Below, piece by piece: positions 12,221 through 17,880 of a stretch of DNA of 64,000 nt; positions within the stretch are counted from its first letter, which is position 1; each line of letters starts with the position of its first letter. Made by a program: the position numbers and the translations under genes. The notes beneath the pieces are model-generated. The model was not told the origin of the DNA. It ran no database searches and worked only from the letters and a program-made list of their open reading frames with translations. The stretch covers positions 1 through 64,000 of the forward strand of contig JAKFVU010000002.1 in the NCBI GenBank assembly GCA_021732025.1, written 5' to 3'. Source of the stretch: Candidatus Obscuribacterales bacterium. GTDB taxonomy: Bacteria > Cyanobacteriota > Vampirovibrionia > Obscuribacterales > Obscuribacteraceae.

Positions 12221-12587
12221 CTACTTGAACTCAGACAACTGTGGCACCACTTTCTATTGCGAGCCTATGTAGGCCAGTTTGTAGAGCTAGAAAAATCACT
12301 CGCTTTTGTAGAAGAGCGAAAATGTTGAACTATGCTCAGAAAGCGGTGCTTCAAAATAGTCTACCTGTATGAAATTTGTAGCACCAGCTGACAAACTGTC
12401 GCAAGCACATGCTCGAAAGTTTCTATTGGTTGGAGCCAATTTTGGCGGCATAGGGAATAGGCAAACGGAAGCCATCTATATGCTGGCACTCCAAAGTCGT
12501 GTATTAAAAGTCAATTTAGCGAGTCTTAAGTGACACCTGATGCCACTGTGCAATATTCAGATTCTAATTGAACGACTGGAATGATTG
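12221..12587 (+). repeat. CTACTTGAACTCA element, left half only (LH0)
   Basis: Aligns over ~365 bp to the left parts of 13555-14136 and 15903-16486; homology stops at ATGATTG (12581-12587). Confidence 0.92.
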
Positions 12588-12710
12588 CTTTGGAAGTGGT
12601 GCTGGAGTAGGGACATCTATCGATTATGATGTCGGTTCTGGTGGCGCCGGTATTTTTTTCAATGGCGGTAACATAAGCATTAGAAGCAACACACTGATTC
12701 AATCTAACTA
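12588..12710 (+). pseudogene. 3' remnant of a Gly-rich protein gene
   Basis: Open frame FGSGAGVGTSIDYDVGSGGAGIFFNGGNISIRSNTLIQSN* with no start, followed directly by a terminator. Confidence 0.5.
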
Positions 12711-12723
12711 GAAATAAGGATCT

Positions 12724-12759
12724 GGATAGCAGCGTTTTTCAACGCTGCTATCCTTTTTT
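12724..12759 (+). terminator. Rho-independent terminator
   Basis: Perfect 11-bp stem GGATAGCAGCG / CGCTGCTATCC followed by TTTTTT. Confidence 0.85.
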
Positions 12760-12798
12760 CTGTATGATTGCTTTAGCTGTGTAGTTTGGAATCAGTCT

Positions 12799-13446
12799 AT
12801 GACAATTATTTGGTGTGCATTTGCGTCTATATTGCTTTCTATTTGCCTTTGTACATCAGCCAGGGCGGATAGCTACTTTCTTGCTGATGCAGATGGACTA
12901 GAACAATTATGGAAAGGTTTTGCGTTAAATGATATCGACATTTTCGATCTGACTGCTGACCTAAATCCGAAATCGGAAGAAGCCGATAAAAGCGATAGAA
13001 AAGTCATGTTGGAGAGTTTCAAGATTCTTCCTGTAGTAAGGATAGACAGGGGAGACACTGCTATTTATGTAAATCCTGACAACGTTTCTCTGCCCGACAG
13101 GCGCGGCATGACCATCCTCCGTCATCGTGACAGGATTCGAAGTCTAGTATTCGAATTGATAAAGTCTTGGCACGAATACCAACGACTGAAAATCTCAGAA
13201 TCTCAAGATATTGATGACATCCTGAAGACAAAAAATCTACAGCATAAACTTATGGTGAAATGTGGTGCAAACTACTTAGAAAAGGCCGAAAGCTGCATGT
13301 CGAGATATTCGCCAGAAGAGTTATCTGCAATTAAGACAGCTTTACCGGGCAGTTTTCCAGTAAAGCGTAAAACTGGTACGAGGTACCACCCCCAAGAGCA
13401 AATACTTTTAGAACCGAATACTTTTCAGGCATCACCTAATCCCTAG
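12799..13446 (+). CDS. Secreted hypothetical protein
   Basis: 215 aa with signal peptide (LLSICLCTSARA). Confidence 0.55.
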   Translation: MTIIWCAFASILLSICLCTSARADSYFLADADGLEQLWKGFALNDIDIFDLTADLNPKSEEADKSDRKVMLESFKILPVVRIDRGDTAIYVNPDNVSLPDRRGMTILRHRDRIRSLVFELIKSWHEYQRLKISESQDIDDILKTKNLQHKLMVKCGANYLEKAESCMSRYSPEELSAIKTALPGSFPVKRKTGTRYHPQEQILLEPNTFQASPNP

Positions 13447-13554
13447 AAAAACGTATTTCTGTAAAAATTTGCACCCGGAGGACCAGTCAGTTTTTTCTTC
13501 TATTGCTTAAACTTTACCGAAAATGATGATTTGGGGACCTTTTTTGTCACTATT

Positions 13555-14136
13555 CTACTTGAACTCAGACAACTGTGGCACCACTTTCTATTGCGAGCCT
13601 ATGTAGGCCAGTTTGTAGAGCTAGAAAAATCACTCGCTTTTGTAGAAGAGCGAAAATGTTGAACTATGCTCGGAAAGCGGTGGTTCAAAATAGTCTACTT
13701 GTAGAAAATTTGTAGCACCAGCTGACAAACTGTCGCAAGCACATGCTCGAAACTTTCTATTGGTTGGAGCCAATTTTGGCGGCATAGGGAATAGGCAAAC
13801 GGAAGCCATCTATATGCTGGCACTCCAAAGTCGTGTATGAAAAATCAATTTAGCGGGTCTGAAGTGACAGCTGTTGCCACTGTGCAATATTCAGATTCTA
13901 GTTGAACGACTGGCATGATTGATGGGAATAAGCACACTTAGCAAAATGCTGATTATGTAGACTAAACATGGTGCCTACAAGATGTCTACAAACGCGCTTG
14001 TAGAAAATGCCACTGAGATGGTGCCTGTTGCACTATTAAATAGTCATGCCACCGGCCATATAAGTTCGACGCCTACAAACATGCCTACACAGTCGCCGAA
14101 ACATTCTCTACACCGACCTTGTGTGAGTTCAAGTAC
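13555..14136 (+). mobile_element. Intact CTACTTGAACTCA element, copy A (MITE-like)
   Basis: Begins CTACTTGAACTCAGACAA, ends TTGTGTGAGTTCAAGTAC (inverted match); inverted subterminal TTGTAG/CTACAA boxes; no transposase ORF. Confidence 0.85.
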
Positions 14137-15902: not shown

Positions 15903-16486
15903 CTACTTGAACTCAGACAACTGTGGCACCACCTGCTGTTGCGAGCCTATGTAGGCAAGTTTGTGGAGCTACAAAAATCACTCGCTATTTTCGAAGAGCG
16001 AAAATGTTGAACTATGCCCCCAAAGCGATGGTTCAAAATAGTCTACTTGTAGGAAATTTGTAGCACCAGCTGACAAACTGTCGCAAACACATGCTCGAAA
16101 GTTTCTATTGGTTGGAGCCAATTTTGGCGGCATAGGGAATAGGCAAACGGAAGCCATCTATATGCTGGCACTCCAAAGTCGTGTATTAAAAGTCAATTTA
16201 GCGAGTCTTAAGTGGCACCTGATGCCACTGTGCAATATTCAGATTCTAATTGAACGAGTGACATGATTGATGCGAATTCGCTAACACTTTGCAAAATGCT
16301 GATTTTGTAGACTAAAAATGGTGCCTACAAGATTTCTACAAACGCGCTTGTAGAAAACGCCACTGAGATGGTGCCTGTTGCACTATTAAATAGTCATGTC
16401 ACCGGCTTTATAAATTCGACGCCTACAAACACGCCTACACAGTCGCCGAAACATTCTCTACACCTACCTTGTGTGAGTTCAAGTAC
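15903..16486 (+). mobile_element. Intact CTACTTGAACTCA element, copy B (MITE-like)
   Basis: Same ends and internal structure as copy A; truncates the RHS frame. Confidence 0.85.
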
Positions 16487-16489
16487 AAA

Positions 16490-16515
16490 GCCGCTCTGTC
16501 AATCGACAGAGCGGC
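16490..16515 (-). terminator. Terminator-like hairpin after the TPR gene
   Basis: 11-bp stem GCCGCTCTGTC / GACAGAGCGGC, loop AATC; sits between the TPR stop and the end of element B. Confidence 0.65.
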
Positions 16516-16524
16516 CTAGACTAA

Positions 16525-17517
16525 TTACTTCAGCGCCGCTAAGGCCTTCTTTTGTTGTTCTAAGTCAGCAATCGCAAATCTTACGAAAGCATCTGAAGCT
16601 TTTTTATTACCTGCTTTGCGCAGATTTTTAGCTACCACCAGATATGGCGACTCACCATTGAATGGTAAGTTTTGGATTTGCCCCCTAAAGCGCAAATCAC
16701 CCATCGCTTTGTCAGGTTGATTCTGCAAAGCGTAAATCGTTGCCCTTAGTGCCAGTATGGCAGGCTCTTCTACACTAAGATAGTTATCCGTCGAGCGCTT
16801 TGGCCGAAGGTTATACAGAAGATTTACAGCCTTTAAAGCTTTGTCAGGTGCATTCTGATCTCTCAAGATTATCGCCTCTACCAATTTGACCTGCGGTCTG
16901 AATGATAGCGATGGTGATAATTTTTTCGCTTGCTCTAAGCAACTAATTGCTTCCGTGGATTTCCCTTTTCGATGAAGTGCAAGTGCCTTTGTGGCAAGAT
17001 AGCCTGCAAACTCATCGGCAAATCCTGCACCTGGTACCATCAAAGCCGTTGTGTCTTTAATAACTTGATCGTTTCGACCCAATACAAGGTCGAGCCGCGA
17101 ACGAACCTCAAAGCAGTCAGAAGGCTGAAACTTATTCCGTTCTTTGGTTCTTACGGCTTGATCGTATAATTTTTGCGCTTCTAATGGCTGAGCAAGTTTT
17201 TCGGAAAGTTGTCCCCCAATGTACTCAGGCTCAGACTGAAGGGAAGTCGAAAGTTTGAAATCATCGAGAGCATTTTTGAACATACCAACCTTGCCATATG
17301 CCAAGCAACGACTATGGATAAGGTTTGGCATTGGCCTCCGACTTTCTGCCATAAGTTCATTAAGCCTACCGATTTGAGCCTCACATTCCGCCAAATCAAG
17401 TGGACTAAAACTGTCACTGTTATCATGCAGCCCTTTTGCATGAGCACAGGCTAAAAGGGATGATATGCCAATTACGAGCATACCTCCTCCAAACCAAACT
17501 CTCGATTTTACCGCCAT
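16525..17517 (-). CDS. TPR lipoprotein
   Basis: Internal start MAVKSRVWFGGGMLVIGISSLLACAHAKG (17517) gives a lipoprotein signal; TPR repeats follow. Confidence 0.7.
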   Translation of the reverse strand: MAVKSRVWFGGGMLVIGISSLLACAHAKGLHDNSDSFSPLDLAECEAQIGRLNELMAESRRPMPNLIHSRCLAYGKVGMFKNALDDFKLSTSLQSEPEYIGGQLSEKLAQPLEAQKLYDQAVRTKERNKFQPSDCFEVRSRLDLVLGRNDQVIKDTTALMVPGAGFADEFAGYLATKALALHRKGKSTEAISCLEQAKKLSPSLSFRPQVKLVEAIILRDQNAPDKALKAVNLLYNLRPKRSTDNYLSVEEPAILALRATIYALQNQPDKAMGDLRFRGQIQNLPFNGESPYLVVAKNLRKAGNKKASDAFVRFAIADLEQQKKALAALK

Positions 17518-17655
17518 CAAATACCTCAGCCATTGGCGCAGAATCCTAAGAACACTGGAGTATAAATCTCCCATTCAAAGGTTTGTGTAATCGACCTGAA
17601 AGTAGTCTACGGTTTATCTCGAACATAATCTTTAATCTTCTGCAAAACGTCAACT

Positions 17656-17880
17656 CATGATTGATGCGAATACGCAAACACTTTGCAAAATGCCGATTTT
17701 TTAGACTAAAAATGGTGCCTACAAGATGTCTACAAACGTGCTTGTAGAAAACGCCACCGAGATGGTACCTGTTGCACTATTAAATAGTCATGCCACCGGC
17801 TTTATAAGTTCGACGCCTACAAAGATGCCTACACAGTCGCCGAAACATTCTCTGCACCTACCTTGTGTGAGTTCAAGTAC
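17656..17880 (+). repeat. CTACTTGAACTCA element, right half only (RHc)
   Basis: Aligns to 13914-14136 and 16262-16486, starting at CATGATTG and ending TGAGTTCAAGTAC. Confidence 0.92.

What the first reader, a model, noticed from the sequence alone, without database searches (positions are those of the whole stretch)
12221..17880. Dispersed ~583-bp element with terminal and subterminal inverted repeats: a candidate undescribed MITE-like family
Two intact copies (13555-14136, 15903-16486) start CTACTTGAACTCAGACAA and end TTGTGTGAGTTCAAGTAC, giving 12-13 bp of perfect terminal inversion. Inside, left-half boxes read TTGTAG (e.g. TGTAGGCCAGTTTGTAG) and right-half boxes read CTACAA (e.g. CTACAAACATGCCTACA), an inverted subterminal arrangement like transposase binding sites. 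All copies point the same way. There is no transposase ORF and no obvious target-site duplication.
Basis: partly seen in the sequence, partly recalled or inferred. Interest (0 to 1): 0.82.

Follow-up and report, generated by a model that had tools for sequence, protein, structure and literature searches.

The report
Mini-elements moved by a tyrosine recombinase
The repeated 583-base pieces are stripped-down copies of a small jumping gene that, unlike almost all such simple bacterial elements, appears to move with a phage-integrase-type enzyme (a tyrosine recombinase), and the full-length versions with that enzyme gene were found in related bacteria.

Summary
The repeat is real: two full copies (13555-14136, 15903-16486), a left part (12221-12587), a right part (17656-17880) and a remnant (7075-7201), all in one orientation. 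In this genome (84% complete) they occur only in this 11-kb cluster. A profile of the right end finds relatives in 16 of 50 genomes of the bacterial family and nowhere else in 392 genomes of the class. Three relatives are longer (1455-1780 bp). They have the same ends and box positions, and between them a single gene for a 431-aa tyrosine recombinase with an arm-binding domain, intact in two and deleted in the third. So the window's copies are best read as MITE-like, non-autonomous derivatives of an IS-like tyrosine-recombinase element. The TTGTAG/CTACAA boxes would be integrase arm-type sites and the terminal repeat the core site, which explains the missing target duplication. Forty-two distinct ends share a sharp boundary preceded by TTY in unrelated flanks. 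Movement, circular intermediates and arm binding are inferred. No complete empty site was found, and flanks look reshuffled. I found no such published family in the paper library searched.

The parts
13555..14136 (+). Full non-autonomous copy b (582 bp): left end CTACTTGAACTC, right end GAGTTCAAGTAC
   Evidence: arm boxes at the same offsets as in enzyme-bearing relatives
15903..16486 (+). Full non-autonomous copy c (584 bp); its left end cuts an RHS gene
   Evidence: RHS frame runs up to 15901
12221..12587 (+). Copy a, left part only (reference positions 1-367)
17656..17880 (+). Copy d, right part only (reference positions 360-584)
7075..7201 (+). Copy e, degraded right-end remnant ending TTGTCTGAGTTCAAGTAC
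   Evidence: 75 bits to the right-end model
15903..16067 (+). Left arm of copy c: terminal repeat (inferred core-type half-site) plus boxes at about 15950, 15969, 16048, 16059 (inferred arm-type sites)
   Evidence: same box offsets (about 45, 57, 64, 143, 154) in enzyme-bearing relatives
16296..16486 (+). Right arm of copy c: boxes at about 16306, 16325, 16336, 16349, 16423, 16435, 16458, then terminal repeat
   Evidence: the region used for profile R1
12581..12587 (+). ATGATTG at the internal break of copy a (possible short duplication with 17657-17663)
17657..17663 (+). ATGATTG at the internal break of copy d
14987..15901 (-). 3' part of an RHS gene (RHS core plus an HEVGH metalloprotease-like tip), open up to the left end of copy c; cut gene at an element end
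   Evidence: translation; TIGR03696, 87.6 bits; intact relatives in G004 continue upstream

Best explanation
The window holds a small family of non-autonomous (MITE-like) derivatives of an IS-like mobile element of Candidatus Obscuribacterales. Its full-length form is about 1.75 kb and encodes one protein, a 431-aa tyrosine recombinase. Shown: the same ends flank the recombinase gene in relatives; the box pattern is at the same offsets in copies with and without the gene; ends sit in unrelated flanks with a sharp boundary. Inferred: the recombinase binds the terminal repeat (consensus YTGGAACTCACACAA) as core-type half-sites and the TTGTAG/CTACAA boxes, often paired 11-12 bp apart, as arm-type sites through its N-terminal arm domain; it excises a circle, the circle inserts at loosely defined sites with TTY on each side, and it can move deleted copies in trans. 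The copies in this genome are probably stranded, because no relative of the recombinase was found in the assembly. Homologous or site-specific recombination between same-orientation copies is the most likely reason that flanking genes are cut on one side only.
For: Relatives with enzyme: G065:C163 (1780 bp) and G073:C481 (1747 bp) with an open recombinase frame, and G065:C164 (1455 bp, about 97% identical to C163 in its two aligned blocks, with an internal deletion in the gene). Protein: PF13356 + PF00589; R, K, HxxR, H, Y invariant in 26 relatives; model resembles lambda and Tn1549 integrases, and its N-terminal domain P4-type arm domains (TM by target 0.84-0.88). Ends: right end of C163 scores 109 bits (E 2e-32) and its left end 29 bits (2e-7) with a model built only from copies lacking the gene. 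Box offsets coincide: left 45/57/64/143/154 in both forms; 9-13 boxes per element against about 1 expected. One genome (G065) holds both forms. 42 distinct ends: no base preference beyond -7, then TT at -6/-5 (31 and 40 of 42) and the conserved end. Right-end matches fall within 150 bp of a contig end in 7 of 23 cases, 0.57 expected, as multicopy repeats do. Identity to intact paralogs starts at the element border in two cases. Enzymes with these ends form one clade, support 100/99.
Against: The recombinase is absent from this genome at E<=1e-20, though the assembly is only 84% complete. Arms of the window copies are about 65% identical to those of the enzyme-bearing copies, so the exact partner was not found. 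The middle 220 bp show no trace of the recombinase gene. No copy with both flanks matching one intact empty site was found. No circular junction was seen in the viral collection. Clustering of all copies in one 11-kb stretch is unusual for a MITE.
Confidence: 0.87

Rival explanations
1. A MITE of a classical DDE transposon whose transposase was not found; the tyrosine recombinase sits between the ends by accident.
For: Terminal inverted repeats and multicopy deletions are typical of DDE elements.
Against: Three elements at distinct sites in two genomes have the recombinase, and no other gene, exactly between the two ends; enzymes with these ends form one clade; no target duplication seen at the ends; multiple paired subterminal boxes fit arm sites.
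Confidence: 0.03
2. A large structured RNA gene: the terminal repeat is a closing stem and the boxes are helices.
For: The strand folds better than shuffles, z = -5.2 on the + strand.
Against: No Rfam match near its cut-off. Pairs in the right arm are mostly invariant or broken rather than co-varying; covariation term is unfavourable, +0.52. Left and right terminal repeats of one copy differ at several positions. Copies flank an enzyme gene in relatives.
Confidence: 0.02
3. A remnant of a larger integrative element (IME/ICE/satellite): decayed attL and attR ends, that is a CIME-like scar rather than an IS-like transposon.
For: Enzyme is of the arm-binding integrase class used by phages and ICEs; CIMEs keep both ends and lose the integrase (PMC5704250).
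Against: Enzyme-bearing copies are only 1.75 kb with no cargo, relaxase or excisionase; ends are inverted and nearly symmetric; many scattered sites rather than one tRNA or gene end; close relatives of the enzyme are absent from viral contigs, best 34% identity.
Confidence: 0.05
4. A passive repeat spread by homologous recombination within RHS/polymorphic-toxin islands, with no mobility of its own.
For: RHS or toxin-like fragments abut several ends: G000 copy c, G004:C21, G031:C178, probably G073; one-sided gene truncations.
Against: Other ends cut an IS256-like transposase gene, an integrase gene, a response regulator and leucine-rich-repeat genes; enzyme gene between the ends; sharp border with a short TTY preference at 42 ends.
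Confidence: 0.03

Closest known systems
Tn916/Tn1549-type tyrosine-recombinase transposons
   Same: Arm-binding tyrosine recombinase, inverted core half-sites at both ends, low target specificity, no target duplication; model matches Tn1549 integrase structures
   Different: Tn916-type elements are about 18 kb or more and conjugative (own knowledge); here 1.75 kb, one gene, no cargo, and a deleted MITE-like form is common
[quoted passage not shown]
   Same: Few copies per genome, a deleted form keeping only the ends, often no direct repeats, flanked by 3' parts of different genes, attributed there to homologous recombination between copies
   Different: TIMEs belong to DDE (Tn3) transposons with 38-bp repeats; here a tyrosine recombinase with arm sites
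CIMEs (cis-mobilizable elements of ICE/IME), PMC5704250
   Same: Keep both recombination ends of a tyrosine-integrase element and lose the integrase
   Different: CIMEs are decayed ICE/IMEs at a specific site; here ends are inverted, sites many and the parent has a single gene
RIT elements (recombinase in trio), PMC3414803
   Same: Small elements moved by tyrosine recombinases with an inverted repeat at the ends
   Different: RIT carry three simple recombinases in about 3.5 kb and lack usual core and arm sites; here one arm-domain recombinase and clear box arrays
P4-type integrases (Arm-DNA-bind_3, PF13356)
   Same: N-terminal arm domain resembles those of HPI, HAI7 and P4-like integrases
   Different: Those serve islands and prophages at tRNA sites (own knowledge); related integrases at 37-43% identity lack these terminal repeats

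Membership tests
MITE (miniature inverted-repeat element) | Short, non-coding, terminal inverted repeats | tested here: met
   582-584 bp, no ORF filling it, 12-bp perfect terminal inversion
MITE (miniature inverted-repeat element) | Ends shared with an autonomous element | tested here: met
   Same ends and box offsets flank a recombinase gene in G065 and G073
MITE (miniature inverted-repeat element) | Many copies scattered through the host genome | tested here: not met
   In this genome only 5 copies, all within 11 kb; scattered in several relatives. I therefore say MITE-like
MITE (miniature inverted-repeat element) | Target-site duplication | tested here: not met
   No matching flanks at full copies; expected for a tyrosine recombinase
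Arm-binding tyrosine recombinase (of the enzyme in relatives) | Catalytic R-K-HxxR-H-Y and N-terminal arm domain | tested here: met
   PF00589 and PF13356 above cut-off; invariant residues; fold
Tn916-type conjugative transposon | Conjugation genes and excisionase | tested here: not met
   Only the recombinase frame lies between the ends
RIT element | Three adjacent recombinase genes | tested here: not met
   One recombinase
Integron cassette array | attC sites and an IntI integrase | tested here: not met
   No integrase of this clade in the genome at 1e-20; enzyme in relatives is arm-domain type; repeats are 583 bp with two distinct arms; no Rfam match at its cut-off
CIME | Derived from an ICE or IME, ends are attL and attR at one specific site | tested here: not met
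   Parent has one gene; 42 ends in unrelated flanks

The most novel reading that the evidence does not exclude
Same-orientation arrays of these mini-elements act as a recombination platform: the tyrosine recombinase, supplied by an incoming full-length copy, recombines element ends and so captures and swaps gene pieces (RHS toxin tips and neighbours) as cassettes between copies, a non-integron way of building polymorphic-toxin islands.
Probability: 0.1. Interest if true: 0.85.

Novelty: new variant of a known kind. Interest (0 to 1): 0.64.

Why it matters
Simple insertion sequences and their MITEs are typically tied to DDE transposases, and tyrosine recombinases to phages, ICEs and integrons. 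A one-gene, IS-sized element with inverted ends and arm-type boxes, plus its own deleted derivatives, fills the gap between the two and gives a minimal natural system for low-specificity tyrosine-recombinase transposition. It also explains the unusual subterminal boxes, and it would mark cut RHS and toxin genes in this poorly known bacterial group.

Tried and rejected
Structured RNA: no Rfam family near its cut-off and no convincing covariation. Plasmid and phage collections: no DNA match. Exact-pattern scan of viral contigs gave one chance hit inside a coding stretch, L058; the same scan of genome contigs gave none. Recombinase remnant in the middle of the window copies: none by tblastn. Own-genome partner recombinase: none at E<=1e-20. 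Circular junction (right end, spacer, left end) in viral contigs: none. Empty sites: homologs of cut genes were found for four copies, but only one flank matched in each. The 7024-7034 flank shared with G005:C31 does not give an empty site for the 7075-7201 remnant. The 99% match of G073:C481 to G031:C36 is one shared segment including flanks, not two insertions.

Full report
OBSERVATION. The repeat is present as described. Copies: 12221-12587 (left part), 13555-14136 and 15903-16486 (full), 17656-17880 (right part), plus a degraded right end at 7075-7201. The terminal 18-mer occurs seven times in the window with up to three mismatches; shuffles give 0.03. Across the whole assembly (85 contigs, 4.61 Mb, 84% complete) no other copy was found, so in this genome the family is a local cluster, not dispersed. 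The left and right partial copies break at the same internal point and share ATGATTG there; this may be one copy interrupted by 5,068 bp that carry the two full copies. What caused that interruption is not known.

RELATIVES. DNA search finds diverged copies in other genomes of the genus and family. I aligned eight right ends and built a sequence-only profile, R1. In 50 genomes of the family it matches 16 (10 of 24 genera) at E<=0.01; in 392 genomes of the class, at E<=1e-5, all 13 genomes with a match belong to that same family. R1 also recognises left ends in inverted orientation, so paired inverted hits reveal whole elements. The published names of matching contigs are Candidatus Obscuribacterales or Melainabacteria assemblies.

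FULL-LENGTH FORM. Three pairs of hits lie further apart than in the window: G065:C163 (1780 bp), G073:C481 (1747 bp) and G065:C164 (1455 bp). Between the ends lies one long frame, read from the left end to the right end. It is a tyrosine recombinase with an N-terminal arm domain: PF13356 and PF00589, both above cut-off. The catalytic R, K, HxxR, H and Y are invariant in 26 relatives (columns R269, K296, H358, R361, H384, Y394). The model (mean pLDDT 77) matches lambda and Tn1549 integrases; its N-terminal domain matches arm domains of HPI, HAI7 and P4-like integrases. G065:C164 is about 97% identical to C163 in its two aligned blocks but has an internal deletion in the gene, a step from full-length to non-autonomous. 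G065 also holds a copy of about 530 bp without the gene (C78), so both forms coexist in one genome.

WHY THE WINDOW COPIES BELONG TO IT. R1 was built only from gene-less copies, yet it scores the right end of C163 at 109 bits (E 2e-32) and its left end at 29 bits (E 2e-7). Box positions agree: about 45, 57, 64, 143 and 154 from the left end, and about 177, 158, 147, 134, 60 and 48 from the right end, in window copies and in C163 alike (not every box is intact in every copy), with 9-13 boxes per element against about one in shuffles. Arm identity between window copies and C163 is 64-65%, so the family is old and the exact partner of the window copies was not found. Recombinases that carry these ends form one clade (100/99); relatives at 37-43% identity in Nitrosomonas, Colwellia and other bacteria, and in sister Melainabacteria loci, show no such repeat by a seed search, which could miss imperfect repeats.

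ENDS AND TARGETS. I collected 42 distinct ends. Outside position -7 there is no preference; then T at -6 (31/42) and -5 (40/42), pyrimidine at -4 (32/42), then the element end (left mostly CTA or CTG, right mostly GTA, then YTGGAACTCACACAA). In the window all left ends have CTA and all right ends GTA, so those bases belong to the element and TTY to the target. Two comparisons with intact paralogs place the border there: G031:C178 right end GTACA|AACAAAAC against intact RHS GGC|AACAAAAC, and G065:C164 left end against paralogs in the same genome. Seven of 23 right-end matches lie within 150 bp of a contig end (0.57 expected), the usual sign of a multicopy repeat; G009 has ends of one sequence at two different sites.

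MECHANISM. Shown: shared ends and box geometry, the enzyme class, unrelated flanks, no target duplication. Inferred: terminal repeats are core-type half-sites, boxes are arm-type sites, movement is by excision as a circle and insertion with short overlap, and deleted copies move in trans. The own genome lacks a recombinase of this clade at E<=1e-20, so the copies here are probably stranded, unless the gene is in the missing 16%.

WHAT DOES NOT FIT YET. At four testable copies only one flank matches the cut gene: the RHS gene at the left end of 15903-16486, an IS256-like transposase in G005, and G065:C164 and G031:C178. A simple insertion would leave both halves. TIMEs, the miniature elements of Tn3 transposons, show the same and the authors propose homologous recombination between copies (PMC4133298); that is my preferred reading. 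Several ends abut RHS or toxin-like fragments; others abut quite different genes, so I do not claim a functional link.

KNOWN OR NEW. Searches of the open paper library for tyrosine-recombinase insertion sequences or their MITEs found RIT elements (three recombinases, PMC3414803), the survey of recombinases (PMC8138268), CIMEs (PMC5704250) and TIMEs, but no one-gene IS-like family with deleted forms. The library lacks most subscription journals. I therefore call it a new variant of a known kind: it works like a minimal Tn916-type transposon with its MITEs, but fails the membership tests for conjugative transposons, RIT elements, CIMEs and integrons.

Noticed in passing
window 5284-7034: A block with an aspartyl-protease gene (5297-6523) is 96-97% identical to G005:C31 and G004:C52, far above the about 72% seen for other shared genes, suggesting recent transfer; an N-terminal stretch of the protease gene is repeated at about 6523-6622.
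   Followed up: partly
window 7024-7081 and 5173-5291: Two short sequences repeated in many contigs of G004 and G005; the first ends just before the 7075-7201 remnant. Possibly a second repeat or cassette family.
   Followed up: partly
window 10227-10680 (+): Broken serine resolvase/invertase gene with stop codons and frame breaks.
   Followed up: no
window 12124-12220 (-) and 12588-12711 (+): Two glycine-rich C-terminal gene fragments, each starting at an element border or break.
   Followed up: no
G031:C36 (L092): 11.1-kb contig whose ends overlap by 815 bp inside an element copy: a small circular plasmid or two identical copies in direct orientation; nearly the same segment is in G073:C481.
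   Followed up: partly
G062:C473 (L097) 2211-4122: Another same-orientation arrangement: a 629-bp copy and a further left end, with pieces of two recombinase-like genes at the borders.
   Followed up: partly
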